Shown here one piece after another: positions 13,231 through 31,311 of a stretch of 64,000 nt of DNA. The stretch comes from Bordetella sp. 02P26C-1 (GTDB taxonomy: Bacteria; Pseudomonadota; Gammaproteobacteria; Burkholderiales; Burkholderiaceae_B). The notes beneath the pieces were generated by a model. That model had not been told where the DNA came from, did not search any database, and saw only the letters and a list, made by a program, of their open reading frames with translations. A program made the translations under genes and the position numbers. Position 1 is the stretch's first letter. Each line of letters opens with the position of its first letter. The DNA lies in assembly GCF_009763255.1 (NCBI RefSeq), contig NZ_WSJB01000011.1, positions 1-64,000 on the forward strand, given 5' to 3'.

Positions 13231-13231
13231 T

Positions 13232-13270
13232 TGAAACGCTCTCGCAAAAAGGGTGGCGAAAAACGTTTCA
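13232..13270 (-). promoter_or_regulatory. Hairpin just 5' of the ribB start (likely riboswitch expression platform)
   Basis: On the minus strand TGAAACG and CGTTTCA pair perfectly (7 bp), with an inner TCGC/GCGA. The 3' arm ends one base before the ATG, so the paired state would cover the ribosome-binding region. There is no T-tract, which fits translational control rather than termination. Confidence 0.5.
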
Positions 13271-13371
13271 GGGCTCATGACAGTCCAGCCGCGCCCAGGC
13301 TCGCTCAGGCGGCGTCGCGCATAGCGGGACACAGCGCCCGCGTATCGCGGGATCGGCTGGCACATCTTCTT

Positions 13372-13506
13372 TCATCCGGACTATGACCGTCGGCTCTGGT
13401 TTCGCACCAGATCTGCTGACCCCGATAGCCATAAGGCACCGGGCGCTCGCGGGCTCGCCCCTGTGGGGCTTACCGCCGGTGGGGAGTTACACCCCGCCCT
13501 GAAGAC
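13372..13506 (-). ncRNA. FMN riboswitch (RFN element)
   Basis: Read on the minus strand, the conserved FMN aptamer is complete. It opens with CTTCAGGGCGGGGTG, continues CCCACCGGCGGTAA, has the variable GC-rich arm, then GGTCAGCAGATC, CCAGAGCCGACGGTCA and closes with AGTCCGGATGAAAGAAG. It is followed by a leader of about 140 nt to the ribB ATG, which also contains a CCCGCG-ATA-CGCGGG hairpin soon after the aptamer. Confidence 0.97.
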
Positions 13507-13573
13507 GTACTGCGATGCCGTCAATGACGACGGCATGAATCGGATTGTACGCTGAGATGGACGCGCCTCAGCC

Positions 13574-16519: not shown

Positions 16520-16554
16520 TGGGGTGGTGCTGTAGGTACTGGGGGGCGTTGATG

Positions 16555-16709
16555 GTTCTTTAGGCGTGCCGCGGGGTTGCCCTTGGCCCCGCGGGCCTAG
16601 TCGCAGCGGCTCGGCCCGTTATCAGGGGCCTCGGTCCCCTTCGGGGACTTCCCGCCGCTCAAAAGGCCCGCGTGGCCAAGGGCAACCCCGCAGCACTCAC
16701 AGTGGGGGC
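16555..16709 (+). repeat. Structured intergenic repeat, copy E1
   Basis: Order of parts: 5' box GTTCTTTAGGCG (16555-16566); left arm 16566-16598; core 16599-16663; right arm 16664-16696; tail TCACAGTGGGGGC (16697-16709). The two 33-base arms pair with only two mismatches. The core carries GTCGCAGCGGCTCGGCCC, then CAGGGGCCTCGG, a small TCCCC-TTC-GGGGA hairpin and CCGCCGCTC. It begins 35 bases after the ilvB stop, in the sense orientation of ilvB. Lack of a T-tract argues against a simple terminator. Confidence 0.85.
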
Positions 16710-16780
16710 ATGCGGCCGCCACACATCGCAGGCGAAGCAAACCGTTTTTGGGGTCATCATTAGCACGGCGCCCTTTCTCA

Positions 16781-16940
16781 GCGCACATCATGAGCCGGCG
16801 TGCGGTGCCCGTAGGCGTCACCGGCCCGTTGAGCGGCGATTTAGCCTCGCGCAGCGAGGCCGAGGCCCCTGCTCGTGGGCCGAGTCGCGGCGATAGGGCC
16901 GGTGACGCCTACGGGCACCGTACGCCGGCGTCTTAAGAAC
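16781..16940 (-). repeat. Structured intergenic repeat, copy E2 (inverted relative to E1)
   Basis: Read on the minus strand: 5' box GTTCTTAAGACG (16940-16929); arms 16929-16896 and 16827-16794 pairing over 34 bases with one mismatch; core 16895-16828; tail TCATGATGTGCGC (16793-16781). The core shares TCGCCGCGACTCGGCCC, ACGAGCAGGGGCCTCGG and CGCCGCTC with E1 and E3, but its internal hairpin is CCTCG-CTG-CGCGAGG. Arm sequence is unlike E1's. It lies downstream of the aldehyde dehydrogenase gene in that gene's sense orientation, so E1 and E2 point at each other in a convergent interval. Bases 16941-17066 contain nothing else I recognise. Confidence 0.85.
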
Positions 16941-17066
16941 GAACAACGCCCCATCTATCCCCCGCTCCCCCCAAAAGAAGCAAGCACCCAAAACACAATC
17001 AGCCCCTGAACGCAGCAAATCCCGCATTTCACGAGCCGACCGTATCACGACCGCATCAACTCACCA

Positions 17067-18503
17067 TCAATCGTGCTTGATAGAGATCGTCTTCAGCACC
17101 GTAAATCCATACAGCGCCTCAAACCCTTTCTCACGCCCATGCCCGCTGGCTTTCACGCCGCCAAAGGGCAACTCAATCCCGCCGCCCGCGCCATAGTTGT
17201 TGATGAACACCTGCCCGCTGCGAACCTTGCGAGCGATGCGCAGTTGGCGTCCGCCATCGCGCGTCCAGACGCTGGCGGCCAGGCCGTATTCCGTGGCGTT
17301 GGCGATGCGAACCGCGTCGGCTTCGTCCTCGAACGGCATGGCGGCCAGAACCGGGCCAAAGACTTCCTCCTGCGCCAAGCGATGGTCCACCGGCACATCG
17401 CGCAGCAGAGTTGGCGCTTGGTAATAACCATCAGCAGGCGCGCCGTCGGCGATTTTGCCCTGCGCGGCCGTCGCGATGCCATCTTGCTCGGCAGACTTCA
17501 GGAAGCTTTGTACGCGTTCCAGCTGCGTTTTGCGGATCAGCGGGCCGCAATCCAGGTCCATCGTCGCCGAGCCTGTACGCAAGGCCGAGAAGGCCTCTGA
17601 GAGGCGTTCCAGCACGCGTTCATAGGCGCTGCGCTCGATCAGCAGACGGCTGCCCGCAGAGCAGGTCTGGCCCGCATTCTGCACGATGGCGTTGACGGCG
17701 ACCGGAATCAGCGCATTGATGTCGGCGTCAGCGAACACGATCTGCGGCGATTTGCCACCCAGTTCCAGCGTGACCGGGATATGACGTTCCGCCGCGGTCT
17801 GCGTAACCAGTACGCCAATGCGCGGCGAGCCGGTGAACGAAATGTGGTCGATGCCAGGATGGCGCGTCAGCGCGTCGCCCGCTTCGTGGCCGTAGCCCGT
17901 CACGATGTTGATGGCGCCCGGCGGAAAGCCCACATCGGCGGCCAGTTCCGCTACGCGTAACAGCGACAGGCAGGCGTCTTCGGCGGGCTTCACCACGCAG
18001 GCATTACCGGCTGCCAATGCGCCGCCCACGCTGCGACCGAAGATCTGCAGCGGATAGTTCCACGGCACCACATGACCGGTCACGCCATGCGGCTCGCGCA
18101 GCGTCAGGACCGTGTAGCCATTTTGATAGGGCAAGGTCTCGCCATGCAGCTTATCCGCTGCACCGCCATAGAACTCGAAATACCGGGCGATGGCGATCAC
18201 ATCCGCGCGGGCTTGCTTGGTGGGCTTGCCGCAGTCGCGCGATTCGATCTCGGTCAGTTCATCGACATGGTCGAGGATCTTCAGCGAGAGTTTCAGCATC
18301 AGACGACCACGCTCGGCAGCGGTGAGCTTGCCCCATGCGCCTTCGTCAAACGCCTTGCGCGCCGCGCGTACGGCCAGATCGATGTCGGCGGCATTGCCGC
18401 GCGGGATGGTGTCGTATTCCTGGCCCGTCGACGGATCGATGACAGGAATCGTCTCGCCGGAGCTGCCAGGAACGGAACGGTTATCGATGAAATGCTGCTT
18501 CAT
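17067..18503 (-). CDS. Aldehyde dehydrogenase family protein
   Basis: 478 residues from MKQHFIDNRSVPGSSGETI; the start at 18503 is the usual family N terminus. NAD(P)-dependent oxidation of an aldehyde to an acid is expected. Catalytic residues are all present: Asn149 in PWNYP, Lys172 in VVKPAE, Glu247 in LELGGKSP and Cys281 in NAGQTCSAGSRLL. It is the last gene of a five-gene operon after an SDR and an ABC importer, 55 bp behind the SDR stop. That context suggests alcohol to aldehyde to acid oxidation of an imported compound; the substrate is not identifiable. Confidence 0.93.
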   Translation of the reverse strand: MKQHFIDNRSVPGSSGETIPVIDPSTGQEYDTIPRGNAADIDLAVRAARKAFDEGAWGKLTAAERGRLMLKLSLKILDHVDELTEIESRDCGKPTKQARADVIAIARYFEFYGGAADKLHGETLPYQNGYTVLTLREPHGVTGHVVPWNYPLQIFGRSVGGALAAGNACVVKPAEDACLSLLRVAELAADVGFPPGAINIVTGYGHEAGDALTRHPGIDHISFTGSPRIGVLVTQTAAERHIPVTLELGGKSPQIVFADADINALIPVAVNAIVQNAGQTCSAGSRLLIERSAYERVLERLSEAFSALRTGSATMDLDCGPLIRKTQLERVQSFLKSAEQDGIATAAQGKIADGAPADGYYQAPTLLRDVPVDHRLAQEEVFGPVLAAMPFEDEADAVRIANATEYGLAASVWTRDGGRQLRIARKVRSGQVFINNYGAGGGIELPFGGVKASGHGREKGFEALYGFTVLKTISIKHD

Positions 18504-18558
18504 GCCTGTGAACCTCAAATGTGTCGTTGCAGATAATGCCGGCGTGATCACCGGGCAG

Positions 18559-19353
18559 CTAAAACAAAATGGATAAACCTCCGTCCACGGCCAGTACCTG
18601 GCCATTGACGTAGGAAGCGGCGGGCGAAGCCAGAAAGACCGCCGCGCCAGCGATTTCTTCCGGACGCCCCCAACGGCCCATGGGATTGCGATGCGCCATG
18701 CGTTGAAAGACTTCCGGGTCCTTGACCATCGCAGTGTTGGTTTCGGTGGCGAAGGTCCCGGGAGCGATGGCGTTGCTGGTGATGCCCAATGGGCCCAGCT
18801 CCGCCGCTAACGCGCGCATCATGCCGGTCAAGCCTTGCTTGGCGGCCGGGTATACGGCGTCACCCGCACGCGCTAATTCACCGGCAACCGAGGTGATGGT
18901 GATGATGCGGCCCGACTTTTGTTTCACCATGCGCGCGGCGGCATGTTTGGATATCAGCATGCTGGCGACCAGATCCGTTTCGATGAGGGCGCGGATCTCG
19001 GCGGCAGTGATGGTTTGCAGCGTCTGACGATTGCGGGCGCCCACGTTGTTGACGAGGATGTCCAGACGACCGAAATCCGCGTCGATCTGTTCAAAGGCGC
19101 GCGTGACCGCGTCGTCGTCACCAACATCGAACGCCAGCGCTGTCGCCGTCAAACCCTCATCGCGCAGCGCCCGGGCCGCGGATTCGGTGGCTTCGGGATT
19201 GCGGCCGTTGATCAGCACATGGGCGCCGCTCGCGGCCATGGCGCGCGCCATACACAGGCCTAGCCCGCGTGCAGAGCCGGTGATGAGCGCAACCTGACCG
19301 GCCAGCGAAAACTGCTGGAGGAAAGCCTGGTTAGCGAGGGTGTTCGTCGTCAT
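18559..19353 (-). CDS. SDR family NAD(P)-dependent oxidoreductase
   Basis: 264 residues with the Rossmann motif TGSARGLG (25-32), NNVG (102-105) and the catalytic set Ser155, Tyr168, Lys172 (TSVAGELARAGDAVYPAAK). The opening FSLAGQVALITGSARGLGLCMARAMAASGAHVLINGR resembles gluconate 5-dehydrogenase-type enzymes. The C terminus GAAVFLASPAASYVNGQVLAVDGGLSI is standard. It starts 27 bp after the permease stop, so it is co-transcribed with the ABC genes. Predicted to oxidise a secondary alcohol or reduce a ketone of the transported compound. Confidence 0.92.
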   Translation of the reverse strand: MTTNTLANQAFLQQFSLAGQVALITGSARGLGLCMARAMAASGAHVLINGRNPEATESAARALRDEGLTATALAFDVGDDDAVTRAFEQIDADFGRLDILVNNVGARNRQTLQTITAAEIRALIETDLVASMLISKHAAARMVKQKSGRIITITSVAGELARAGDAVYPAAKQGLTGMMRALAAELGPLGITSNAIAPGTFATETNTAMVKDPEVFQRMAHRNPMGRWGRPEEIAGAAVFLASPAASYVNGQVLAVDGGLSILF

Positions 19354-19380
19354 GATGCGGTCGGGAAAGTCTCGGCAAAA

Positions 19381-20232
19381 TTATTCGCGGAACTCCGGGG
19401 CCCAATGCAGTAGCCTGCGCTCAAGCCATGTGACAGCGTACACCAGCGCGATGCCTACGACCGACAGCAGCGTGACCGCCGCGAACATGTCGGTGGCATT
19501 CAACGTAGCGAGCGCCGTCACCATCAAGTACCCCATGCCGGTAGTTGATCCAACGAATTCCGCGAGCACCACACCAATCAACGCAAAGCTGATCGCATTG
19601 GGCAGCGCGGCAAACGTCCATGCGGCAGCGGTGGGCACGCGCACGCGCCACAAGATCTGACGCGGCGATCCGCCCAGCGTGCGGCAGAAATCCACGAGTT
19701 CGCGTTCCACGCTGCGTCCGCCTTTATAGGTGTTGAAGAACACCAGGAAGAACACCACGAACCACGAGGTCACGACTTTCGATGCCAGCCCCAAACCAAA
19801 GAACATGGTGATCAGCGGCACGAACGCGATACGCGGCATGGAGTTAAAGGCAACGATAAACGGATTGAAGATATCGGCCAACATCCGGCTTCGGCTAAGC
19901 ACCATGCCCACGATAAATCCGCTGCCTACGCCCACGACCAGGCCGACCAGCGTGGCCTCCAGCGTGAGCCATAGATGCGGCCATACCGAGCGCGGGCCGG
20001 GCTGCAGCCATTCCCATAATCGCGCGGCGATGCGCGACGGCTGGCTGATAAAGAACGGATCGAAGATCGTGTTCTGCGCGAACCACGGAATGCTGGTCAA
20101 AATCTGCCAGCCGCCGATGATGGTGGCGAGGATCAGCAGCTGCCAGGCCGTGATGCGCAGCCGTCGCCGCACTTGCGCGCGGCGGTCTTGTTGCAGTTGA
20201 TCCTGCAAGGAAGAAGCGTCGATTGCAGTCAT
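19381..20232 (-). CDS. ABC transporter permease (SsuC/TauC/NitT type)
   Basis: 283 residues with about six membrane segments. The cytoplasmic EAA loop that contacts the ATPase reads DFCRTLGGSPRQILWRVRVPTAAAWTFAAL. The family pattern FNSMPRIAFVPLITMFFGLGLASKVVTSWFVVFF is clear. It stands with the ATPase and binding protein immediately upstream, completing a nitrate/sulfonate/taurine-class importer. The substrate is not fixed by family. Confidence 0.93.
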   Translation of the reverse strand: MTAIDASSLQDQLQQDRRAQVRRRLRITAWQLLILATIIGGWQILTSIPWFAQNTIFDPFFISQPSRIAARLWEWLQPGPRSVWPHLWLTLEATLVGLVVGVGSGFIVGMVLSRSRMLADIFNPFIVAFNSMPRIAFVPLITMFFGLGLASKVVTSWFVVFFLVFFNTYKGGRSVERELVDFCRTLGGSPRQILWRVRVPTAAAWTFAALPNAISFALIGVVLAEFVGSTTGMGYLMVTALATLNATDMFAAVTLLSVVGIALVYAVTWLERRLLHWAPEFRE

Positions 20233-20247
20233 GAATACTCGGCGGCG

Positions 20248-21045
20248 CTAGGCCGCGGCACGGAATTGTTCGCCCAGCACGCTCCATAGACTTTGAACGT
20301 GCGAGACAAACTGTGGCGTCTCGCGCAATACAAAGACATCACGGGGATGCGGGATGGTGATGCGTTCATCGAGCAGGACACGGCTGGGTGGACCCGATAG
20401 CACGATGACGCGATCAGACAGTGTGATGGCTTCATCCAGATCGTGCGTCACCATCACAACGGTCTGCCCGAGCTTTCGCCAGATCTCGATCAGCTCGCGA
20501 TGCAGGTGCGTCTTGGTGTGCGTGTCCAGCGCGCCGAAGGGTTCGTCCAGCAGCAGGATGCGTGGCTCGACCGCCAGACTCATCAAGAGCGCCACGCGCC
20601 GCCGCATGCCGCCCGATAACTGATGCGGATAGGCATCGCCAAAACCGGTGAGATGCCCCAATTCCAGTAGCTCGACGACACGGCGTTCGATCCGCGCCGG
20701 GTCCACGCCCTGGAATTTCAAGCCGAGCGCCACGTTCTTGCGCACGGTGTACCAGGGCAATAGCGTGTCTTTCTGAAAGATATAGCCCAGGGCTGGCGGC
20801 ACCTGTCCGTTGACCAGCTCGCCCGCCACGCGGATGGTGCCGGTGGTGGGCGCCAGAAAGCCCGCGATCATGTTCAGCAGCGTGCTCTTGCCGCAGCCGG
20901 ACGGCCCCACGATAGATACGAACTCGCCTTCCGCGATGGAAAGCGAGACGTTACCGATCGCATGAACCATTCCGGCGCGGCCCTGATAGGCCTTGCCGAC
21001 CTCGGAGATTTCAATCATCGTCGTTTCACGTCCTGCCCGCTGCAT
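20248..21045 (-). CDS. ABC transporter ATP-binding protein (SsuB/TauB type)
   Basis: Walker A GPSGCGKST, Q-loop FQKDTLLPW, signature LSGGMRRRVALL, Walker B ILLLDEPFGALD and switch VTHDLDEA are all present. I place the start at 21045, where its ATG overlaps the binding-protein stop as TGATG (translational coupling). A second ATG at 21018 (MIEISEVGKAYQ) matches the family N terminus and is a fair alternative. It powers the permease at 19381-20232. Confidence 0.93.
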   Translation of the reverse strand: MQRAGRETTMIEISEVGKAYQGRAGMVHAIGNVSLSIAEGEFVSIVGPSGCGKSTLLNMIAGFLAPTTGTIRVAGELVNGQVPPALGYIFQKDTLLPWYTVRKNVALGLKFQGVDPARIERRVVELLELGHLTGFGDAYPHQLSGGMRRRVALLMSLAVEPRILLLDEPFGALDTHTKTHLHRELIEIWRKLGQTVVMVTHDLDEAITLSDRVIVLSGPPSRVLLDERITIPHPRDVFVLRETPQFVSHVQSLWSVLGEQFRAAA

Positions 21046-22106
21046 CAGGCCGCTTTGCGCGCGCGTTCCACGAAGGACATGTCCACGCATTGAGCATACG
21101 GCACACGCTTGAGCTCTTCGTTCGAGAACTGGCGATCGTCGCCCATGATGGCGATCATGCGATCGTAGGCGGCTGGCGTGATGATGTTGTCCTTCAGGAA
21201 AACGGTGTCCTTATAAATCGTCAGCGTTTTCTCGATGGCCGGGCGCGGGAAGGCGTTCAGGTAGTCATCGTAGATCGTGTCGGTGATTTCCTGCACGCTG
21301 TGATCGGTGATGAAGTTCTGAGCCTTTACCAGCGCTGTGACGAACGCCTGCACGACTTCGGGGCGTTTCTGGATGGTGTCTTGCAGTGTCAGCGCGGCGA
21401 TACCGGGCACGTCGCCGCCCATGAATTCATTCCACGCGGCTTCGGTGGTGGCGTCGAAAATCGGCACGCCCCAGCCTTCGGCCTTGGCTTGCTCCATCAT
21501 CGACATGGTGGCCATGCTGGCCGATACCGAACCCGTTTTCAGCGCGCCCAGCATGGTGGCCAGATCGCCCAGCGGACGCACATCGACTTTGTCGGCGATG
21601 CCGGCCTGCTGCATGAGATAAACCGCCATCAACCATGTCACCGACTGCGGCTGCGTGGCGCCAACGCGCTTGCCGGCGAGGTCTTTTAGCGATTTGATTT
21701 TGCCGCTCTCGTAGTCCTCGCGGCGCACGATCACGTTGGCGTAGGTGAGCTTGCGATCGAAACCGAAGATCAGGCTCGCGGGTTTACCCGCCAAGGTCAA
21801 CGCGGGCGCAGCAGTCGCGGCGGTGGCGCCAAACTGGATTTGCCCGGCCGCCAGCATCTGCATGGTGCGCGGGCCGCTTTGCGAATTCAGGTACTCAACT
21901 TCGAGGCCGCCTTCACCAAAGTAGCCTTTTTTGAACGCCACATACGCGGCAGAGAAAAACGGATCGATGCTACCCAAACCGAATACGGCTTTGCCGAGCT
22001 TGGCTTGCGCAAAAGCGGGCGCGCCGATGAGGCTGGTGCCGGCGATGGCGGCGGTAGAGGCCAGAAACTGGCGGCGGGAAAAGGCACCTGTTTGCGAGCG
22101 CTGCAT
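21045..22106 (-). CDS. Tat-exported ABC substrate-binding protein (NMT1/SsuA-like)
   Basis: 353 residues. The N terminus MQRSQTGAFSRRQFLASTAAIAGTS has a twin-arginine motif and the signal ends near APAFAQA. GAGGA precedes the ATG by a few bases. Binding-protein features include KKGYFGEGGLEVEYL, AAGQIQFGATAATAAPAL and SLKDLAGKRVGATQPQS. Members bind sulfonates, taurine, nitrate, pyrimidine precursors or aromatic acids. It is the first gene of the operon that ends with SDR and aldehyde dehydrogenase genes. Confidence 0.92.
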   Translation of the reverse strand: MQRSQTGAFSRRQFLASTAAIAGTSLIGAPAFAQAKLGKAVFGLGSIDPFFSAAYVAFKKGYFGEGGLEVEYLNSQSGPRTMQMLAAGQIQFGATAATAAPALTLAGKPASLIFGFDRKLTYANVIVRREDYESGKIKSLKDLAGKRVGATQPQSVTWLMAVYLMQQAGIADKVDVRPLGDLATMLGALKTGSVSASMATMSMMEQAKAEGWGVPIFDATTEAAWNEFMGGDVPGIAALTLQDTIQKRPEVVQAFVTALVKAQNFITDHSVQEITDTIYDDYLNAFPRPAIEKTLTIYKDTVFLKDNIITPAAYDRMIAIMGDDRQFSNEELKRVPYAQCVDMSFVERARKAA

Positions 22107-22163
22107 GTCATCCTCGAGAGTTGTTGTACGAAATTATTTTGCGAAACGATACTGCAAATGTGG

Positions 22164-22195
22164 AAAGACCGTGGGATTTCCACGGTCTTTTTAAT
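22164..22195. terminator. Hairpin terminator between topB and the ABC operon
   Basis: AAAGACCGTGG, five-base loop, CCACGGTCTTT: an 11-bp perfect stem. It follows the topB stop (22249) by about 54 bases on the minus strand, where three T follow; on the plus strand five T follow. It probably ends the topB transcript. Confidence 0.75.
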
Positions 22196-22248
22196 GATGT
22201 GAGCCGGATCATACGATAGGGGATAACCCGGCTGCCGACCCAGCCTCG

Positions 22249-24861
22249 TCAGCTTGCCGTTTTGGCAGCGGCTTTCTTGGCGGCGGTCTTCTTCGTCGCG
22301 GCCTTTTTGGTGGCGGCTTTTTTGGGCGCCGCTTTCTTGGCCGCTGACTTGGCGGCGGTTTTGCTTGCCGTCTTTGTCGCCGTCTTGGCCGGCGCGCGTC
22401 CCGGTTTCGCCGCGCGCGGCTCGAACTCAAAGCCGATCTTGCCGTCGGGCTGACGCACCAAGAACGCCTTGAACTTGCGATTGGTGCGGCTGGAGACGAA
22501 TCCATCTAGCAGATCGGTACGGCCATTCGTCAGCAGTTTGTGCATCTGCTCGCGCGAGATCTCCTGCTGCAAAATGATCTTGCCCGAACGGAAGTCGCAG
22601 GACTTTTCCGGGCCCACCGATTTCTCGCACACGTAGCTCAAGCCATGCTCGAAGACATTCGCGTGGCACTTGGGGCAGCCGCCCACCGGCGTGTGTCCCG
22701 TAAAGTCCACCGCTTCGTTGTCTTCTTCGTCGTTCTGGCCGAAGTCGAATTCGAGCTTGTTTTCGTCGCTGAGCCGCAAGATGGCGGCGAACGGACGGCC
22801 CATCTTGCTGATAAAGCCTTGCAAGGGACCGATCTCGCGCTTGGCCAGCAGCTCTTCGACTTCCGGCAGTTCGAACGTGCGCCCACCCGGGTGCTTGCCG
22901 ATGGAGAAGTCGCAGTTCGTGCAAGCGAAACGGCGATAGTTTTCCTTGACCACGCCGCCGCATTTGGGACATGGGGTTGTCAAGGTGGCATAGTCGCCGG
23001 GCACGGTGTCGCGCTCGTATTCCTTGGCGCGCTTGACGATGACCTGGGTCATTTGCGCGATTTCGCGCATGAAGGCCTCGCGGTTCAAACCGCCCTGCTC
23101 GATCTGCTTGAGCTTGTGCTCCCATTCGCCCGTGAGTTCGGGCGAGGTGAGTTCGGTCACGTCCAAACCCGCCAATAGCGTCATCAACTGGCGCGCCTTG
23201 GCGGTCGGAACAAGTTCCCTGCCCTCGCGGCGCAGGTAGCCTTCGCCTAGCAAACCTTCGATGATGCCCGCGCGCGTGGCCGGCGTGCCCAGGCCGCGCT
23301 CGGACATGGCTTCGCGTAGCTCTTCGTCGTCGACCAGCTTGCCCGCGCCTTCCATGGCCGACAGCAGCGTGGCTTCGGTGTAGCGGGCCGGCGGCTTGGT
23401 GGCCAGACCCACGGCCTCGACATCCTCGGTGCGCACGGTCTCGTTGTCGCCCACCGGCACGAGGTTGGCGTCCTCGCCTTGCGCTTCCTTGCCGTAGACG
23501 GCCAGCCAGCCCGGCGACACAAGCACTTTGCCCTCGGTCTTGAAGCGATGACCCTGCACTTCGGTCAAGCGCGTGGTGACGCGGTACTCGGCCGGCGGGA
23601 AAAACACGGCCAGGAAACGCTTTAACACCAGATCGTAAAGCTTGCCCTCGGCCTCGCTTAGATCGTGCGGGATTTGCAGCGTGGGGATGATGGCAAAGTG
23701 ATCGGAGACCTTTTTATTGTCGAAGATGCGACGATTGGGTTTGACCCAGTTCTGCTCTATGACGGTGCCTGCGTGACGCGACAGGCCGCCCACGGCGTTC
23801 GAGCCGCCTTGGGCCAGCGCCTGCATGGTCTGGCGCACCGTGCCCACGTAATCCTCGGGCAGGTAGCGCGAATCGGTACGCGGATAGGTCAGTGCTTTAT
23901 GGCGTTCGTACAGGGTCTGCGCCAGTGCGAGCGTGGTTTTGGCGGAAAAACCAAAACGGCCGTTGGCCTCGCGTTGCAGCGAGGTCAGGTCGTACAGGGC
24001 CGGCGACATCTGGGTCGAGGGCTTGGACTCTTCCGTGACTTGACCGGGCTGTTCGCGACACGCGGCCACTACACTTTGGGCAGCCGCCAGCGACCAGAGG
24101 CGCGAATCGCGCTTTTCCGGATCGCGTTCGTCTTTCTTGAAATCCGGATCGATCCAGCGGCCCTGATAGAGACCCGCGGCGGCGACAAAGGTCGCATGGA
24201 CCTCCCAGTAATCGCGTGACACGAAGCGGCGGATACGTTCTTCGCGCTCGGCCACAATCGCCAGCGTCGGCGTTTGCACGCGTCCGACGGGCGTTTTAAA
24301 GAAACCGCCGTCCTTGCTGTTGAACGCCGTCATGGCGCGCGTGCCGTTGATGCCCACCAGCCAGTCGGCCTCGGCGCGCGAGCGGGCGGCGGCCTCCAGC
24401 GGCTTGAGCTGGGCGTCATCGCGCAGATTCTCGAACGCCTCGCGGATGGCGGCCTGCGTCATGGACTGCAGCCACAGCCGTTTGATCGGCTTTTTCACCC
24501 CGGCGTACTGAATGATGTAGCGGAAAATCAGTTCGCCCTCGCGCCCGGCGTCACAGGCGTTGATCAGGCCGTCGACGTCCTTGCGCTTGGCGAGTTTGAC
24601 CAGGAGCTTCAGGCGCTCGGCGGATTTCTTATCGGCCGGGCCCAGCTCAAAGGCTGGCGGGATCACGGGCAGGTGCGTAAAGCTCCACTTCCCTTTGACG
24701 GGATCGTTGGGCGCGACCAGCCCCAGCAAATGTCCGATGCTGGAAGACAGCACGTAACGATCACTTTCAAAATAGTCCCCCTCGCGCACGAAGCCTCCTA
24801 GGGCGCGCGAGATATCAAGGGCCACCGAGGGTTTCTCGGCAATAATCAGCGTTTTGCTCAT
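22249..24861 (-). CDS. topB: DNA topoisomerase III with histone H1-like tail
   Basis: 870 residues, type IA topoisomerase that decatenates single-stranded regions. The Toprim domain starts KTLIIAEKPSVALDISRALGG and has NACDAGREGELIFRYI. The active-site tyrosine is in ALTYPRTDSRYLPEDY. Two C-terminal four-cysteine zinc-finger-like modules appear (CPKCGGVVKENYRRFACTNC and CPKCHANVFEHGLSYVCEKS). The last 55 or so residues are almost only Lys, Ala, Thr and Pro (KTATKTASKTAAKSAAKK and similar), like the H1-type DNA-binding tails of Burkholderiales. The gene diverges from the DUF2157 gene across 62 bp. Confidence 0.95.
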   Translation of the reverse strand: MSKTLIIAEKPSVALDISRALGGFVREGDYFESDRYVLSSSIGHLLGLVAPNDPVKGKWSFTHLPVIPPAFELGPADKKSAERLKLLVKLAKRKDVDGLINACDAGREGELIFRYIIQYAGVKKPIKRLWLQSMTQAAIREAFENLRDDAQLKPLEAAARSRAEADWLVGINGTRAMTAFNSKDGGFFKTPVGRVQTPTLAIVAEREERIRRFVSRDYWEVHATFVAAAGLYQGRWIDPDFKKDERDPEKRDSRLWSLAAAQSVVAACREQPGQVTEESKPSTQMSPALYDLTSLQREANGRFGFSAKTTLALAQTLYERHKALTYPRTDSRYLPEDYVGTVRQTMQALAQGGSNAVGGLSRHAGTVIEQNWVKPNRRIFDNKKVSDHFAIIPTLQIPHDLSEAEGKLYDLVLKRFLAVFFPPAEYRVTTRLTEVQGHRFKTEGKVLVSPGWLAVYGKEAQGEDANLVPVGDNETVRTEDVEAVGLATKPPARYTEATLLSAMEGAGKLVDDEELREAMSERGLGTPATRAGIIEGLLGEGYLRREGRELVPTAKARQLMTLLAGLDVTELTSPELTGEWEHKLKQIEQGGLNREAFMREIAQMTQVIVKRAKEYERDTVPGDYATLTTPCPKCGGVVKENYRRFACTNCDFSIGKHPGGRTFELPEVEELLAKREIGPLQGFISKMGRPFAAILRLSDENKLEFDFGQNDEEDNEAVDFTGHTPVGGCPKCHANVFEHGLSYVCEKSVGPEKSCDFRSGKIILQQEISREQMHKLLTNGRTDLLDGFVSSRTNRKFKAFLVRQPDGKIGFEFEPRAAKPGRAPAKTATKTASKTAAKSAAKKAAPKKAATKKAATKKTAAKKAAAKTAS

Positions 24862-24923
24862 GGGTATCCAGTGGCGGCAGACCCGCCGGTGTAGCGCGGA
24901 TGATACGAGGGGAGATTCGCCAC

Positions 24924-27518
24924 ATGCAAGTCAAGTCGGAAATTCGACAGCAATATGAGTTACATGCGTGGCGGCAATTTCTGGCCCGAAGCACCCTTTG
25001 GCTGGGGATCTGGCTGCTGGGATCCGCAGTCATTTGCGCCGTCGCGGCAAATTGGGACAGTGTGACAAAAACGCAGCGTTTCATTGGCGCGCAGGGGCTG
25101 CTCGCAATTTGCGTGCTCGCTGCCGCAGGGTCTGGCTGGCGGTGGCGGGCCGTTGACGACGCCCGTCAGTATGCGCCTTCTGCGTTATTGGCGCTGGCCG
25201 GGCTGCTGTTGGGCGCGTTGTTGGCGCTGCTGGGGCAAACGTATCAGACCGGGGCTGATACCTGGGAATTGTTTGCCGTCTGGGCCGGTCTGCTGCTGCC
25301 GTGGGCGCTGGTGGGCAGGACGCAGGTGGTGTGGCTGCTGTGGATGGGTGTGGTCAACGTCGCCGGCTTGCTCTATACCTGGGACGGGCATGTGTTTTGG
25401 CTGGCTGCGAGAGACGGCGAACAATTTTTGCCCTTGGTACTGGTGAATCTGCTCTTTCTGGCTGGCTGGGAAGTCGCGGGCCGGCGTGCGGGCGCGAGCA
25501 TGCGGATCGGGCCGAGGCTATTGCTAGCCGGGGCGCTGGGGTTGCTGTTGGCGACACAATTCCTGTCGGCCCCGGATTATTACGGCTTGGGGTCCAGCCT
25601 GACTTGGGTATGGGCCGTGGTAACGGTGGGCCTGGGTTTTTACTACCAGCGTGTGCGCCGTGATCTGGTCGCGTTGGCGATCCTGGCCGCTGGTGTGATC
25701 GTGATGTCGCTGCGCATCGTGGGTGAATGGTGGTTGGACGTCGCCAACGGGCCCTGGGGGGCGCTCGCGCTCGCGGCGATCTTGATCGCCGAGGCGGTGG
25801 TGGCGGCGGGCTGGCTGCGGCGCCTGGCGGCAACCCTGCCAGCGGCGGGTACCCCAGACATTCCCGCTCCCCTTGCCGCACCGTGGTATGTGCAAGGGTT
25901 ACTCGCCTTGAGCGCCTGGCTGGCGACATTGCTGCTGCTGCTTTTCCTGGTGGCGGTGGCCTGGGTGGAGTCCACCGAGGGAGCTTTAGTCAGCGGGCTG
26001 GTGCTTTGCGGACTCGCCGTGACGGGCTTGCGGGTGAGCACCCGCTTATTCTGGCGCCAGTGCCTGACGGCGATGGGTTTTGGCGGTCAGTTGTTGGTGT
26101 GGTTCGCGTTGCTGTTTGGGGACGCGACCTATGAGCTTCATACCGGCGTTTGGTTTTGTCTGCTCGTCGTGGGCGCGTTGGTCTACGCCTTTGGGCGGGA
26201 TGTGCTGCTGCGGTTTTTAACGGCAGGACTCATTGCGCTTGCCTTGAGCGGGCTCATCGCATTGCAGTGGCTGTCCGGGATGGCGAATGAAGAACTGCTG
26301 TGGACGTTATGGGATGACAACGGGCTATCGACGCGGGTGTGGCTGCCGGTAGAGGTCGTCGGGGCATGGGCGGCGGCGGTTGCTTTTTATCTGGGGTACC
26401 GCCCGGTCTGGGCGGGGGCGGGTGTCGGGGAAGCCGGGCCTGGTGCGTCCCCGGAACCTCAACGCGTGGCGTTAACGGCGCAAGGCCGCTGGGTCGCCTT
26501 GCGTCCGTTGGCCTGGGCCTTCGCGTTGGCGGTGCAGCTGACGGTGGGAATGGTGGGCGGCGCATCAATCACGCACTTAGCCGCGTTGTGGCGGGGTGAG
26601 GCGCTGTTTGCGGTCATCGTCGTGGCTGGGGTGTTGCTACCGGCGGTCTGCGCGCTGGTGGTGCTATGGCCGCGCCGTGCCGTGCTGACGAGTGGCGTGG
26701 TGTGGGGTACGCCGTTGGGGTTGCTGTTGTTGGCCCTGTTCTGGTTACGGAGTCCGGGCGTGGCCTTCGCGCTCGCGTGGTTGCTGCTGGGTTACGGACA
26801 GAGGGACACACGACTGACGACGCTGGGCGTGGTGGGTCTGCTCGCGTATGTGATGTTTTACTACTACCAACTGCAGGTGCCGCTGATCGATAAAGCCTTG
26901 TGGCTGGGCGGCGCGGCGTTGTTGTTATTTTTCCTGCGTGCGCTCGTGTACTGGGTGCCGCGTTGGATGAAGACGATTGAGGTGCCCAGCGCCGTACGCC
27001 TGGCTCCGGCCTCCTCGGCCTTGCGTTGGCGTACGGTTGGCATGTTGGCGGGCTTGGGACTGATCCTCGCGGTGGTGAACACCACGATCTGGCAACGCGA
27101 AACACTGCTGGCGCAAGGGCGAGTCGTGATCCTGGAACTGGCGCCCGTGGATCCTCGATCGTTGATGCAGGGCGACTATATGGCGCTGAATTTCGCCGTC
27201 GCGGATTCGCTACGGCCGCGCTGGGATAGCGCCGCGCACGATCTGACGGGCGATGGATATGTCGTGCTGGCCTTGAATGGCGACGGCCTGGGACAGAAAG
27301 TGCGTACGCAGGAGGACGCGATGCCGCTAAAGCGGGAAGAAGTCGCGTTGCGGTACCGGATTCGCAATGGCGATGTGCGCATGGTGACCAATGCTTATTT
27401 CTTCCCGGAGGGACAGGCCGATCGTTACGCGAATGCTCGCTATGGCGAGTTGCGCGTGGGCGACGATGGCACTGCGCTGTTGGTGCGATTGCTGGATGGT
27501 GACCGGCAGCCGCTTTAG
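24924..27518 (+). CDS. Large membrane protein with DUF2157, DUF4401-like and GDYXXLXY domains
   Basis: 864 residues from the ATG at 24924, which has AGGGGAG nine bases upstream (a 24900 start adds eight residues). The N terminus has a short cytosolic segment then a DUF2157 pattern (ARSTLWLGIWLLGSAVICAVAANWD). About 20 hydrophobic segments follow. The C terminus after about residue 700 leaves the membrane and contains RVVILELAPVDPRSLMQGDYMALNF, the hallmark of the GDYXXLXY domain, then a periplasmic-looking beta-rich end. Function is unknown; the domain trio is often found fused like this. Confidence 0.85.
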   Translation: MQVKSEIRQQYELHAWRQFLARSTLWLGIWLLGSAVICAVAANWDSVTKTQRFIGAQGLLAICVLAAAGSGWRWRAVDDARQYAPSALLALAGLLLGALLALLGQTYQTGADTWELFAVWAGLLLPWALVGRTQVVWLLWMGVVNVAGLLYTWDGHVFWLAARDGEQFLPLVLVNLLFLAGWEVAGRRAGASMRIGPRLLLAGALGLLLATQFLSAPDYYGLGSSLTWVWAVVTVGLGFYYQRVRRDLVALAILAAGVIVMSLRIVGEWWLDVANGPWGALALAAILIAEAVVAAGWLRRLAATLPAAGTPDIPAPLAAPWYVQGLLALSAWLATLLLLLFLVAVAWVESTEGALVSGLVLCGLAVTGLRVSTRLFWRQCLTAMGFGGQLLVWFALLFGDATYELHTGVWFCLLVVGALVYAFGRDVLLRFLTAGLIALALSGLIALQWLSGMANEELLWTLWDDNGLSTRVWLPVEVVGAWAAAVAFYLGYRPVWAGAGVGEAGPGASPEPQRVALTAQGRWVALRPLAWAFALAVQLTVGMVGGASITHLAALWRGEALFAVIVVAGVLLPAVCALVVLWPRRAVLTSGVVWGTPLGLLLLALFWLRSPGVAFALAWLLLGYGQRDTRLTTLGVVGLLAYVMFYYYQLQVPLIDKALWLGGAALLLFFLRALVYWVPRWMKTIEVPSAVRLAPASSALRWRTVGMLAGLGLILAVVNTTIWQRETLLAQGRVVILELAPVDPRSLMQGDYMALNFAVADSLRPRWDSAAHDLTGDGYVVLALNGDGLGQKVRTQEDAMPLKREEVALRYRIRNGDVRMVTNAYFFPEGQADRYANARYGELRVGDDGTALLVRLLDGDRQPL

Positions 27519-27601
27519 TGTTTTGTGCGGCTTGGTACGGTGCGCGAGTGCCGGATTAGCGGGACCGGAATCGATGCAGGCGAACGAAGTCCGGCGTGTC
27601 C

Positions 27602-28486
27602 TTAGGCGGCGTGCCGCACAAAGCGCCGCGCCCACAGCAAGGTCGCGCGTTGCAGGAATTCTTCGGGGGTGGCGACTTGTACCGGCGCGAAGCCGAGCGC
27701 CCGCCACGCGTGCTCCAGCATCAACATTGGCTGGCGGGTATCCAGCGCCGGCGCACCGTTCTGCTTGGATAGTTTCAGACCACTTTCGGGGTCGGTGATC
27801 AGGGGTACGTGCATGACACGCGGAGGCTGCGCGCCCAGCAGGCGGGCGAGGACACGCTGACGCGCGGTGGAGCTGAGCAGGTCCGCGCCGCGCACGATAT
27901 CGGTGACGCCCTGCGCGGCGTCGTCTACGACGACGGCAAGCTGATAGGCCCATAAACCGTCTGCGCGTTTGAGCACGAAGTCACCCACGGCATGTTCGAC
28001 GTCCTGCTGCTGTGGGCCGAGCCAGCGATCGGTAAAGGTTTCCACGCCGGGGGGCACGCGTAGCCGCCACGCGCGGGCTTGACGGCCTGGGGCCAGTCCG
28101 GCGCGGCAGGTGCCGGTATAGGGACGCTCGCCATCGGCATTGGTGTAGCCGCCGCGCAGGGCGGAGTCGGCGATTTCACGACGGGTGCAGCCGCAGCCAT
28201 AGATCAGACCACGTTGCGCGAGCGCATCAAATGCTTGTTGATAGGCCTCGCCACGTTGGGACTGCCAGACGATGTCGCCATCCCAATGCAGGCCGAGGGC
28301 GCGCAGCTGGGACATGATGGTCTCGGCGGCACCCGGCACGGTGCGCGGCGTATCGACGTCTTCGATGCGCACCAGCCAGCGGCCGCCGTGCGCGCGGGCA
28401 TCGAGCCAGCTGGCCAGGGCGGCGACTAAGGAACCCAGATGTAATGGACCGCTGGGACTCGGCGCGAAACGACCGACGTAGGTCAC
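27602..28486 (-). CDS. gluQ: Glutamyl-Q tRNA(Asp) synthetase (GluQRS)
   Basis: 294 residues, a truncated glutamyl-tRNA synthetase lacking the anticodon-binding domain; it attaches glutamate to queuosine in tRNA(Asp). The class I ATP motifs are visible: [14 protein letters not shown] (HIGH-like) and [10 protein letters not shown] (KMSKS-like). The zinc site CGCTRREI with later TGTCR is also typical. Its start is three bases after the smg stop, so both are likely one transcript. Confidence 0.95.
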
Positions 28487-28489
28487 AAC

Positions 28490-28948
28490 TCAGTGGAGCC
28501 GGCGGCTGCCCTCGTCATCGAGCAGCTCTTCGAGGACCAAGTTATCGATTTCGGCTTCCTGGCTCCAGAGGACCATGAGCGCGATGATTTTCATCTGATC
28601 GAGCGGCACGGGGGTCTCCGGCGCGGCCAAGGCGCGGTCGATGACGATTTCACGCAAGGGCGCGGGCAGCACGCCAGCGGATTCGAGGAATGCGATGAAG
28701 CCGATGGACTCGGAGCCCAGCTGACGGTATTCGGAATCGGTGTAGATGCGAGTGCCAGTGCTGGGCACTTGAGCCAGATCGACGCAGCGCTCGGTGGTTT
28801 CGGCCAGGCCATACAGCCAGCCGAGGGCGTCGTCTATGTCTTCGTGCTCGAAACCAGCTGCCGCCAGGCGCTTGGCCAGGATGTCTGCCGCGGGACAGGC
28901 TTGCGGGGTGTAGTAGTTTTCGAACAGATAAACGAGGATATCGAACAT
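28490..28948 (-). CDS. smg: Smg family protein (DUF494)
   Basis: 152 residues starting MFDILVYLFENYY, the invariant family N terminus, and ending LEELLDDEGSRRLH. E. coli Smg is 157 residues. The in-frame extension to 29158 crosses the E3 repeat and is not real. The family is usually next to dprA and a topoisomerase gene. Here topB lies 3.6 kb further along the same strand, with gluQRS and the DUF2157 gene between. Function is unknown. Confidence 0.93.
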   Translation of the reverse strand: MFDILVYLFENYYTPQACPAADILAKRLAAAGFEHEDIDDALGWLYGLAETTERCVDLAQVPSTGTRIYTDSEYRQLGSESIGFIAFLESAGVLPAPLREIVIDRALAAPETPVPLDQMKIIALMVLWSQEAEIDNLVLEELLDDEGSRRLH

Positions 28949-29123
28949 ATGGCGCAAGGTATTGCCTGTTTGCACAGTCGGCCCGCATATCGGCAAACCA
29001 GCAAACGTGGATTTAAATGTACGCCGAATTGGGTGTGGGGGCAAATGGGTGAGTTCTGGGGTTTCTTTCGGCTGATTTGGGCGGGATGGTGGGGAGTTTG
29101 GGGCGATTATTGCCACGGACAGG

Positions 29124-29276
29124 GTTCTTTTGGCGCCACGGGCCGGGGTGTGAGGCACCCCGGCCTAGTCGCCTCGGCTCGGCCCCACGAGCAGGGGGCC
29201 GAGGTCCCTGCGGGACTGCCCTCGGCTCGATAGGCCGGCGTGGCTCACACCCCGGCCCGTGGCTCGCATTGTGCGC
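29124..29276 (+). repeat. Structured intergenic repeat, copy E3
   Basis: 5' box GTTCTTTTGGCG (29124-29135); arms 29135-29167 and 29231-29263 pair over 33 bases with two mismatches; core 29168-29230; tail TCGCATTGTGCGC (29264-29276). The core shares TAGTCGC, CGGCTCGGCCC, CACGAGCAGGGG and CCCTCGGCTCGA with the other copies; its inner hairpin is GTCCC-TGC-GGGAC. It ends four bases from the TRAP permease stop, on the opposite strand sense. The rest of the 332-bp gap 28949-29280 holds only the smg leader. Confidence 0.85.
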
Positions 29277-29280
29277 CCGC

Positions 29281-31311
29281 TTAGGCTGCGGGTAGAGGTT
29301 TGGCGTTTTCCAGTTTGAGTTGCGCCAGCTGACGGATGAAAACTGGGATGCAGATGGCCAGACCGATCAGGCCGCTGGTGTAGCCGGGGATGATGGTTAG
29401 CAAGGCGCCAATGACGCACAGCCAACGTTCCCACGTTTTCATCTTCACCAACATATAGCGGGAGAAGGCAGCGGAAAGCAGCGTCAGGCCGATGACGCAA
29501 CCCAACAACGTTTCCCAGAATGCCGGCCACGTGAAGCCCTTGACCGAGATCAGGAGCGATGGCGAGAACACGAACACGAATGGGACGATCAGCTTGGTGA
29601 TGCCTAATCGGAACGCGGTCACGCTGGTGCGCAGCGGGTCGCTGCCTGCCATGCCTGCTGCGGCGTAGGCGGCCAACGCCACGGGGGGTGTGATGTCGGC
29701 GAGGATGCCGAAATAGAACACGAAGAAGTGAGCGGCAATGGGTTGTACGCCGAGCTGCACCAGGATGGGCGCGGCGACGGCGACCATGATGAGGTAGTTA
29801 GCGGTGGTGGGTACGCCGCAACCCATCAGGACGCAGACGATACCGGTCATGACCAGTGCCGCGAGCAGCGTCAGCGTGGTCATGTTGGCGACAAAGTCCG
29901 GGATGACGGAATCCAGGCCGCCCGCGATGAACTGCGCGGCCGAGATCACGATGAACGAGAGCTTGAAGCCCACGCCGGTCAGGGTGACCACGCCAATGAC
30001 TAGGCCCACGGTGCCGGCTGCGGCGCCAACGGCCAGCGCATACTTTGCACCGGTCTCGAATGAGTCGTACAGGTCGCGCCATTTCAGGCGTTGAAACGGG
30101 TTGAGCAGACCAACGATGATGCAGCCGGTGATGCCGGCGAATGCGGCAAGGTACGGGGTACGGCCACTGGCCAGCACGTAGATGAGGGCCACGAGCGGCA
30201 GCAGCGTGGGCCAGCGCCGCTTGAAGGATTCGCGCAGCTTGGGCATTTCATCGTCGCGCAGACCGCGCAGACCTTCGCGTTTGGCCTCGAAGTGCACCTG
30301 CATGAACATGCCGAAGAAATACAAAAAGGCCGGCGCAATGCCCGCGACAATGATTTGTTGATAAGGGATGCCGAGGAACTCGATCATCAGGAACGCGGCC
30401 GCGCCCATGATGGGGGGCGTGATTTGACCGCCCGTGCTGGAAGCGGCTTCCACGCCTGCCGCGAAATGGCGGGGGTAACCGATACGCACCATGGCCGGGA
30501 TCGTCAGCGAGCCCACGGTTACGGCGTTGGCGACCGAGGATCCGGACAGCATGCCGAACATGGCCGAGCCAAAGACGGAGACCTTCGCGGGACCGCCTGC
30601 GTAGCGGCCCGCGACGAAGGACGCGACATCGAGGAACAACTGGCCTAGACCGATACGGCTGGCCAGCACGCCGAACAAGACGAAGTGAAACACGTAGGTG
30701 GCCACCACGCCCACGGCAACGCCGTAGACGCCCTGACTGGTCAGGTACATGTGGTTGACGATCTGCGACCACGAGTTGCCAGCGTGTTTAAGCAGGCCGG
30801 GAAACATCGGACCCAGCCAGGCGTAGGCAAGGAACACTAGCGCGATGACCGGCAATGGCCAGCCCATCGCGCGGCGTGTGCCCTCTAGCAGGCCAATGAT
30901 CAGGATGGTGCCCATGGCCACGTCCATCGGCATCGGGTTGCCGACGCGAAAGGCGAGGTCTTCGAAAATGTACGGGATATAGAGAACGCTGAAGGCCAGC
31001 ACGATGGCAATGGCCCAGTCGTAGAGCGGCACGCCGCCGGGGGCATACCAGGTCGAGCGTGGCTCGCGTTTGTAGTGGGCCTTGCTAAAGCCGAACACCA
31101 AAAAGATGAGGCTTAAAACAAATGCCAGATGCACGCCGCGATGAGTGGCTTCGCGCAGCAGGCCAAAGCCCGCGGTGTAGTAGTGAAAGACCGACAACGT
31201 GACGAGCAAGAACGAAACGATTGCGGTTGCGATGGGCGCTAAGGGGCGAAAGCGGATTTCTGAGTCGAATTTTTCCGCGAGTTGCTGGGCTTTGTCGTGG
31301 TCGATTTCCAT
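29281..31311 (-). CDS. TRAP transporter fused permease (DctQ-DctM, 4TM/12TM)
   Basis: 676 residues, with the small four-helix and large twelve-helix subunits in one chain, as usual for TAXI-type TRAP systems. Large-subunit motifs include GSAMFGMLSGSSVANAVTVGSLTIPAMVRIGYP, ASSTGGQITPPIMGAAAFLM, and CVLMGCGVPTTANYLIMVAVAAP. The C-terminal segment contains FGILADITPPVALAAYAAAGMAGSDP. It pairs with the TAXI receptor 75 bp upstream for sodium- or proton-driven uptake of an organic acid or amino acid. Confidence 0.95.
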   Translation of the reverse strand: MEIDHDKAQQLAEKFDSEIRFRPLAPIATAIVSFLLVTLSVFHYYTAGFGLLREATHRGVHLAFVLSLIFLVFGFSKAHYKREPRSTWYAPGGVPLYDWAIAIVLAFSVLYIPYIFEDLAFRVGNPMPMDVAMGTILIIGLLEGTRRAMGWPLPVIALVFLAYAWLGPMFPGLLKHAGNSWSQIVNHMYLTSQGVYGVAVGVVATYVFHFVLFGVLASRIGLGQLFLDVASFVAGRYAGGPAKVSVFGSAMFGMLSGSSVANAVTVGSLTIPAMVRIGYPRHFAAGVEAASSTGGQITPPIMGAAAFLMIEFLGIPYQQIIVAGIAPAFLYFFGMFMQVHFEAKREGLRGLRDDEMPKLRESFKRRWPTLLPLVALIYVLASGRTPYLAAFAGITGCIIVGLLNPFQRLKWRDLYDSFETGAKYALAVGAAAGTVGLVIGVVTLTGVGFKLSFIVISAAQFIAGGLDSVIPDFVANMTTLTLLAALVMTGIVCVLMGCGVPTTANYLIMVAVAAPILVQLGVQPIAAHFFVFYFGILADITPPVALAAYAAAGMAGSDPLRTSVTAFRLGITKLIVPFVFVFSPSLLISVKGFTWPAFWETLLGCVIGLTLLSAAFSRYMLVKMKTWERWLCVIGALLTIIPGYTSGLIGLAICIPVFIRQLAQLKLENAKPLPAA

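What the first reader, a model, noticed from the sequence alone, without database searches (positions are those of the whole stretch)
16555..29276. Three-copy family of ~155-bp structured intergenic elements with conserved core and covarying arms
E1 (16555-16709), E2 (16781-16940, inverted) and E3 (29124-29276) share a 5' box GTTCTT-NN-G-N-CG, a ~65-nt core containing TCGC..CGrCTCGGCCC and a CAGGGG block, and a tail close to TC-N4-TGTGCGC. The 33-34-bp arms flanking the core differ in sequence between copies, yet each pairs with its partner with at most two mismatches. The core's internal hairpin also changes compensatorily (TCCCC/GGGGA, GTCCC/GGGAC, CCTCG/CGAGG). Divergence with retained pairing points to selection on structure: a cloverleaf-like RNA, a mobile hairpin moved in trans, or a protein-binding cruciform. 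No transposase is nearby.
Basis: seen in the sequence. Interest (0 to 1): 0.82.

Follow-up and report, generated by a model that had tools for sequence, protein, structure and literature searches.

The report
Paired long-hairpin DNA repeats of Bordetella
Short stretches of non-coding DNA that fold into long branched hairpins are scattered, often as facing pairs, between the genes of Bordetella-like bacteria; their stems keep matching although the letters change, and the enzyme that would spread them is unknown.

Summary
E1, E2 and E3 are the only inverted repeats in the window with arms of 18 bp or more within 700 bp. They are 3 of 13 copies found in this genome. Relatives occur in all 9 held genomes of its genus group, 6 of 15 of a second group labelled Bordetella, and 1-3 copies in three other genera of the family; none was found outside the family among genomes drawn from the order and class. 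Covariation is strong. No Rfam family reached threshold.

Anatomy: box, 32-34 bp arm, three-way-junction core, second arm, tail. Of 38 two-copy loci, 35 have cores that face each other; 36 lie at a gene 3' end. Arm mismatches (67 A.C, 12 G.T) and C(TNC)G loops point to the opposite strand as the folded one.

Best reading: REP/BIME-like non-autonomous hairpin repeats, arms homogenised by template switching and probably kept by selection on a folded single strand. They fail REP membership: no GTAG-type tag, too long, no linked RAYT. The mobilising enzyme is not identified; identity with the catalogued Bor-2 repeat could not be tested.

The parts
16555..16565 (+). E1 5' box GTTCTTTAGGC
   Evidence: a-type box composition from 58 copies
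16566..16598 (+). E1 first arm
   Evidence: 31 of 33 positions pair
16599..16663 (+). E1 core: three-way junction with two inner hairpins; P4 loop CTTCG
16664..16696 (+). E1 second arm
16697..16709 (+). E1 tail TCACAGTGGGGGC (b-like tail by eye)
16697..16793 (.). 97-bp spacer between the facing hairpins E1 and E2 (both tails included)
16781..16793 (-). E2 tail
16794..16827 (-). E2 second arm
   Evidence: 33 of 34 positions pair
16828..16895 (-). E2 core; P4 loop CTGCG
16896..16929 (-). E2 first arm
16930..16940 (-). E2 5' box GTTCTTAAGAC
29124..29134 (+). E3 5' box GTTCTTTTGGC
29135..29167 (+). E3 first arm
   Evidence: 31 of 33 positions pair
29168..29230 (+). E3 core; P4 loop CTGCG
29231..29263 (+). 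E3 second arm
29264..29276 (+). E3 tail TCGCATTGTGCGC; no partner hairpin found
14705..16519 (+). gene that points at E1: thiamine-pyrophosphate enzyme
17067..18605 (-). gene that points at E2: aldehyde dehydrogenase
29281..31311 (-). gene whose 3' end abuts the tail of E3: TRAP transporter DctM

Best explanation
E1-E3 are copies of a dispersed, non-coding, extragenic repeat that works like a very long REP/BIME. The unit is box, 32-34 bp arm, branched core, arm, tail; two units often stand facing each other around an unrelated spacer. SHOWN: the family, its spread, the covariation, the facing pairs, the preference for gene 3' ends, rare inversion of arm-core-arm inside fixed flanks, and orthologous sites occupied in one relative but without the element in the others looked at. 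INFERRED: (1) the element is recognised as a folded single DNA strand, probably the strand complementary to the box-first one, by an enzyme acting in trans that spreads it or once did; (2) arms stay complementary because template switching copies one arm onto the other and because misfolded copies are lost; (3) beside gene ends the element is tolerated rather than needed. The enzyme is unknown; the known REP enzyme (RAYT) is not linked to it.
For: Thirteen copies in the genome and up to 43 in relatives. In this genome the three pairs at C33, C37 and C25 are closely similar hairpins (one C33 arm has a 13-nt deletion) in unrelated flanks; likeness stops at the box outside and soon after the tails inside, and the spacers differ. 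The E1/E2 and E3 sites are occupied in G098; in the other 10 and 8 genomes that matched the flanking gene, neither the core model nor a core-independent inverted-repeat scan finds a comparable element. In G100 and G099 the E1/E2 intergenic region holds GGTGTC[AT]GACACC repeats instead. Two-copy loci: 35 of 38 have cores '+ then -', none '- then +', and the remaining 3 are those with an inverted core. Of 38 pairs, 36 lie at one or two gene 3' ends. Within-copy pairing of the outer 20 bp is 97.3% against 38.4% across copies; among 135 pairs of similar copies 543 positions changed on both sides and 52 on one. Strand: 67 A.C against 12 G.T, same sign in left and right pair members and in singles. 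P4 loop C(TNC)G in 113 of 117 copies, which is C(GNA)G on the other strand. Template switching is reported to homogenise arms and invert spacers (PMC8604942, abstract in the listing).
Against: No mobilising enzyme was found. Y1 transposase (PF01797) was not found in this genome nor in G098, G079, G080 and G090, which carry 13-43 copies. No full-length mobile version was seen; one 9.3 kb interval between two facing copies showed metabolic-looking reading frames only, judged by eye. No target-site duplication or base-exact empty site was defined. Four G079 loci on contig C17 have an aligned counterpart in G080, one of them degenerate; two more on C13 match by coordinates, and for one of these by arms as well. 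Movement is therefore slow or past, although the totals differ (43 and 26). Pair members are a+b in 18, a+a in 10 and b+b in 1 of 29 pairs with both members assessed, so a strict two-ended unit is not shown.
Confidence: 0.5

Rival explanations
1. The elements are inert relics. Their perfect arms and changing letters come only from replication template switching between neighbouring inverted repeats, which copies one arm onto the other and now and then inverts the core; nothing selects for the hairpin.
For: Linked changes on both sides between close relatives (L084/L104, L076/L099) and core inversions (3 clear of 100) are what template switching makes (PMC8604942 and PMC8794818, abstracts seen). 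Degenerate copies exist.
Against: Arm length stays at 32-34 bp in 90 of 117 copies and the triloop class stays fixed while its stem and middle base change. Mismatches are strand-biased, 67 to 12. Box and tails outside the arms are conserved too. Pure drift predicts none of these, though recent common descent of copies could explain part.
Confidence: 0.25
2. The hairpin works in RNA at the ends of transcripts: it blocks 3' exonucleases, is cut by a double-strand RNase, or stops transcription, as proposed for REPs.
For: 29 of 40 single copies have the box facing a gene 3' end; stop-to-box distance is under 65 bp in 22 of these 29 and in 36 of 47 cases at pairs. Pairs fit both genes of convergent couples (11 of 38).
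Against: No U-run terminator at E1/E2. G.T pairs of the box-first strand are rarer than A.C. In 11 of 40 single copies, E3 among them, the box faces a gene start. Insertion preference or counter-selection would give the same places.
Confidence: 0.15
3. A DNA site extruded as a cruciform and bound by a nucleoid, topology or recombination protein.
For: Constant arm length and a junction-like core.
Against: No binding data; 9 of 15 genomes of the second Bordetella group gave no hit, so it is not a general chromosome function; the strand asymmetry suits one folded strand better than a symmetric cruciform.
Confidence: 0.07
4. Integron attC-like sites used by a tyrosine recombinase on the bottom strand.
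For: Bottom-strand folding and gene-3'-end position resemble attC sites (recalled).
Against: An integron integrase (TIGR02249) over its cut-off occurs in 1 of 12 element-bearing genomes searched. Copies are dispersed and face each other rather than stand in one array; by eye, no attC core consensus (recalled) at the ends.
Confidence: 0.02

Closest known systems
REP / BIME (REPIN) repeats mobilised by RAYT (TnpA-REP)
   Same: Extragenic, multicopy, palindromic, conserved tag on the 5' side, single or as inverted pairs, near gene 3' ends; single-strand recognition proposed here.
   Different: Arms 32-34 bp around a branched core of about 65 nt instead of a 20-40 bp palindrome; tag GTTCTT...C rather than GTAG/GTGG; no linked RAYT.
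TIR repeats of TIRYT transposases (TIRtrons; PMC3733652, section 16 read)
   Same: Long, partly self-complementary repeats found singly or as dimers at short distance.
   Different: Defined by flanking a Y1 transposase gene; none found linked here.
Bor-2 repeat of B. bronchiseptica (PMC2267715, passages read)
   Same: Table row: 167 bp model, intergenic, 17 members of which 6 cover the whole model, structure score 1.00; similar length.
   Different: No sequence in the passages seen, so identity could not be tested.
Bor stem-loops of Bordetella (PMC1590033, passages read)
   Same: Palindromic extragenic repeats of Bordetella.
   Different: 26-30 bp stem-loops. Whether they equal the GGTGTC[AT]GACACC repeats seen here was not tested.
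AAV/parvovirus terminal repeats (recalled)
   Same: T-shaped hairpin on a long stem with an invertible inner part.
   Different: No replication protein or linear replicon seen; the core is strongly biased to one orientation.

Membership tests
REP/BIME (RAYT-associated) | palindrome of 20-40 bp with a short loop | tested here: not met
   arms 32-34 bp in 90 of 117 copies plus branched core
REP/BIME (RAYT-associated) | GTAG/GTGG tetranucleotide 0-2 nt 5' of the stem | tested here: not met
   a-type composition GTTCTT(G/T)AG(G/A)C before the arm, 58 copies; b-type (26 copies) ends in G-G/A-C too
REP/BIME (RAYT-associated) | RAYT gene flanked by the repeat | tested here: not met
   none in own genome; 6 of 16 relatives have one Y1_Tnp; in those six fetched loci only one weak match (17.5 bits, L213, E 0.017)
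REP/BIME (RAYT-associated) | extragenic, dispersed, often inverted pairs | tested here: met
TIRtron TIR family | TIRs flanking a TIRYT gene | tested here: not met
   no Y1_Tnp in G000, G098, G079, G080, G090
MITE of a DDE insertion sequence | terminal inverted repeats conserved between copies | tested here: not met
   97 distinct outer 5' arms among 100 copies
MITE of a DDE insertion sequence | target-site duplication | tested here: inconclusive
   orthologous sites without the element too diverged, by eye, for a base-exact empty site
integron attC site | cognate integron integrase | tested here: not met
   over cut-off in 1 of 12 genomes
intrinsic terminator | GC-rich stem followed by T run | tested here: not met
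   0 sites in window 16400-17150; E3 region not scanned
known Rfam family | gathering score reached | tested here: not met
   (whole window); below-threshold hits to other families, mostly miRNA hairpins, around E1/E2
Bor-2 | sequence match to the published model | not testable with these tools
   no sequence in the passages read; no supplement look-ups allowed

The most novel reading that the evidence does not exclude
A facing pair is the two ends of a mobile cassette whose functional hairpin sits near the 3' end of each strand. These branched hairpins would act like parvovirus terminal repeats, folding back, priming or being resolved, and so re-copying one arm from the other (changing letters, perfect pairing) and occasionally inverting the core. 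That would be a hairpin-ended transposition mode new to bacteria, with freely exchangeable cargo such as the glyoxalase-like gene of B. ansorpii.
Probability: 0.06. Interest if true: 0.9.

Novelty: new variant of a known kind. Interest (0 to 1): 0.55.

Why it matters
It is a clean natural case in which stems stay near-perfect while their letters turn over, with enough copies and orthologous sites to separate selection on folding from template-switch homogenisation. It also points to an unidentified single-strand-acting enzyme in Bordetella relatives in which no RAYT was found.

Tried and rejected
Rfam: only hits far below gathering scores, mostly to miRNA hairpins, treated as chance. Plasmid and phage records: no match (E1 against plasmids only, one G079 copy against both). 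Viral contigs: no exact match of one core pattern. RAYT as mobiliser: rejected for lack of linkage. Integron integrase: rejected. Autonomous copy: the 9.3 kb interval at G080:C10:207817-217221 has amidohydrolase-like, aldehyde-dehydrogenase-like, GTPase-like and ABC-binding-protein-like reading frames by eye, no transposase recognised (no family search was run on them). A partner of E3: none found. My first idea that every pair is a+b was wrong: 18 a+b, 10 a+a, 1 b+b of 29 pairs with both members assessed (the a/b sorting is a crude flank score). P2 is poorly paired in the second core group (one of its pairs forms in 8 of 24 sequences), so that helix is weakly supported there.

Limits. The 117 copies are the 125 model matches less 8 weak reverse-strand matches to the same places; they come from 78 fetched sources in 12 genomes, not from every copy counted. 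Searches use the 100 of 117 whose arms were 30-36 bp; 17 were dropped, some with broken or deleted arms, which inflates the pairing figures. Copies are related, so counts are not independent. The helix tally took the first 117 of 125 rows of A2 and includes a few reverse-strand duplicates; it shows 53 G.T and no A.C in helix P2, against the arm pattern, but P2 is ill-aligned there and I rest nothing on that tally. Gene context rests on a home-made hexamer gene caller, not on annotation. (R1, 268 family genomes) scored only 16 candidates per genome, and 11-12, so these give floors; R2 at full depth was run on 27 genomes. R1 and R2 model one core type; other cores exist and are missed by them. 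DNA folding favours the complementary strand for E1 and E2 but not E3.

Papers. No description of this repeat was seen in the searches (open-access library, word searches only). PMC2267715, PMC1590033, PMC6006769 and PMC6479982: passages read. PMC3733652: passages and section 16. PMC8794818: abstract and the start of the introduction. PMC8604942: abstract in a search listing. PMC12306157 (REP survey, listing) was not read.
Full report
THE OBSERVATION. A scan of all 64 kb for inverted repeats with arms of at least 18 bp within 700 bp returns exactly these three: E1 33 bp (31 paired), E2 34 bp (33 paired), E3 33 bp (31 paired). All fold far better than shuffled sequence as DNA on both strands (z -8.5 to -12.2). 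The box GTTCTT-NN-G-N-C(G), the TCGC...CTCGGCCC motif, the CAGGGG block and the compensating P4 hairpin are present. The one misfit is E1's tail.

THE FAMILY. BLAST and a covariance model (R1, from 12 copies) led to 13 copies in this genome. A second model (R2, from 24 diverse copies) also finds 13, and 40 in G098, 43 in G094, 31 in G100, 43 in G079, 26 in G080, 25 in G090, 19 in G097, 13 in G086, 11 in G091, 3 in G183 and 2 in G157; then 8, 16, 11 and 9 in G095, G096, G099 and G101, 1 in G112 and 3 in G092, and none in nine other genomes of the second group. So all 9 held genomes of the window's genus group and 6 of 15 of a second group carry it. 13, G100 as B. genomosp. 2, G183 as Paracandidimonas soli and G157 as Mesopusillimonas faecipullorum. 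R1 over 268 genomes of the family gave 12 with a match. A draw of 399 genomes of the order gives only this genome and G112 (R2); a draw of 369 of the class gives only this genome (R2); both used strict filters. Two copies were sought among plasmids and one among phages without a match; one exact core pattern has no match in viral contigs.

ANATOMY. Box (a-type GTTCTT(G/T)AG(G/A)C; b-type more variable), arm of 32-34 bp (90 of 117 copies), core of about 65 nt with helices P2, P3 and P4 around a three-way junction, arm, tail (a-type like TCGCAATG..., b-type like TCACAGCAGTGGCATGC). P4 ends in C(TNC)G in 113 of 117 copies: TGC 60, TTC 33, TAC 20. On the complementary strand this is C(GNA)G; GNA loops make unusually stable DNA mini-hairpins (Yoshizawa et al. 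1997, seen as cited in PMC6479982). Among the 79 places that hold the 117 copies, 38 hold two: 35 with cores '+ then -', 2 '- -', 1 '+ +', none '- then +'. The spacers run from 67 to 660 bp. One 660-bp spacer, shared by both B. ansorpii genomes, holds a glyoxalase-like reading frame. In three of 100 assessed copies the arm-core-arm block is inverted inside otherwise normal flanks (L088, L093, L108; a fourth, L082, is doubtful); these are the three same-strand pairs. In G098 the ortholog of E2 has the same kind of box, arms and tail but a 150-nt core of another kind, and L059 shows yet another core. The ends, not the core, therefore define the wider family.

COVARIATION. On the R2 alignment 92.7% of cells pair, against at most 51.4% when partners are slid; 20 of 28 pairs change on both sides, against 10.0 in shuffles. 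The outer 20 bp of the arms pair at 97.3% within a copy and 38.4% between copies, and 97 of 100 are distinct. Among 135 pairs of similar copies 543 positions changed on both sides and 52 on one (17 of 117 copies were left out, some with broken arms). At orthologous sites the same is seen: L084/L104 and L076/L099 in the two B. ansorpii genomes. E1's first arm agrees with its G098 ortholog at 24 of 33 positions, yet the two pair at 31 and 33 of 33.

WHICH STRAND. In 3,309 arm pairs of 100 copies, 3,187 are Watson-Crick, 67 are A.C or C.A, 12 are G.T or T.G and 43 are other mismatches, read on the box-first strand. A.C on this strand is G.T on the other, so wobble seems tolerated on the complementary strand and not on this one. 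The bias has the same sign in left (21:0) and right (14:2) pair members and in singles of both strands (17:3, 15:7), so it belongs to the element and not to the chromosome strand. With the GNA loop this points to the complementary strand as the folded one. Predicted DNA folding agrees for E1 and E2 but not for E3. DNA and RNA are not distinguished by this, and an unknown strand-biased mutation process is not excluded.

WHERE IT SITS. Of 38 pairs, 36 lie at one or two gene 3' ends; of 40 single copies with a gene called on the box side, 29 face a gene 3' end. E1 and E2 lie between a thiamine-pyrophosphate enzyme gene and an aldehyde dehydrogenase gene that point at each other; E3 abuts the 3' end of a DctM gene and lies upstream of the DUF494-coding part of the ORF at 28490-29158. 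No intrinsic terminator or sigma-70-like promoter was found at 16400-17150. Ten further genes around the elements include no transposase.

MOVEMENT. Three pairs in this genome (C33, C37, C25) are closely similar hairpins in unrelated surroundings with unrelated spacers. The E1/E2 flanking gene was matched in 11 genomes and the E3 flanking gene in 9 of 11. Only G098 holds elements there. R2 finds nothing significant in the others (best 16.7 bits, E 0.12), and a scan for inverted repeats of 18 bp or more that needs no core finds no comparable hairpin with a box in them. In G100 and G099 the E1/E2 intergenic region holds GGTGTC[AT]GACACC repeats; repeats of the GGTG(T/C)C type also lie near 5 of the 6 RAYT genes of this group. 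Gain or loss thus happened between species. Against frequent movement, several elements are shared by the two B. ansorpii genomes, and one G080 copy sits where shared gene order stops. No Y1 transposase was found in this genome, G098, G079, G080 or G090; the six RAYT loci found in the genus group show only one weak match to the element (17.5 bits, E 0.017). An integron integrase over its cut-off occurs in 1 of 12 genomes.

MECHANISM. I read it as a REP/BIME-like non-autonomous repeat with a giant branched hairpin, spread by an unidentified single-strand-acting enzyme. Perfect but changing arms and inverted cores are both products of template switching between inverted repeats (PMC8604942, abstract; PMC8794818, abstract). 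The constant arm length, the fixed loop class and the strand-biased mismatches suggest selection on one folded strand as well. The enzyme, the single-strand recognition and any present activity are inferred, not shown.

KNOWN OR NEW. It fails three defining REP features and the defining TIRtron feature but shares their layout. The catalogue of stem-loop families lists Bor-2 in B. bronchiseptica (167 bp, 17 members, intergenic, structured; PMC2267715, passages). That may be this repeat; no sequence could be compared. I therefore call it a new variant of a known kind, with a real chance that a line in a 2008 table already holds it without description.

Noticed in passing
window 13360-13510 (-): FMN riboswitch (112.3 bits) next to the DHBP synthase gene at 12490-13365 (-).
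   Followed up: no
window 5522-5573 (-): nhaA-I RNA (46.3 bits).
   Followed up: no
L216 2779-2996 (G098); L059 632-783 (G098): Elements with the same kind of box, arms and tail but a different core (150 nt and 68 nt); other core types probably exist that the models miss.
   Followed up: partly
L219, L223; L210, L212-L215; spacers of L115, L117-L119, L121, L125: GGTG(T/C)C...GACACC-type repeats in the E1/E2 intergenic region of two relatives, near five of six RAYT genes, and inside spacers between the long hairpins.
   Followed up: partly
L084 525-926 (G079) and L104 1226-1597 (G080): Glyoxalase-like reading frame lying between two facing hairpins in both B. ansorpii genomes.
   Followed up: partly
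G080:C10 near 159826-159885 (L140): Gene order shared with the compared stretch of G079 stops beside an element, as if it lay at a rearrangement joint.
   Followed up: partly
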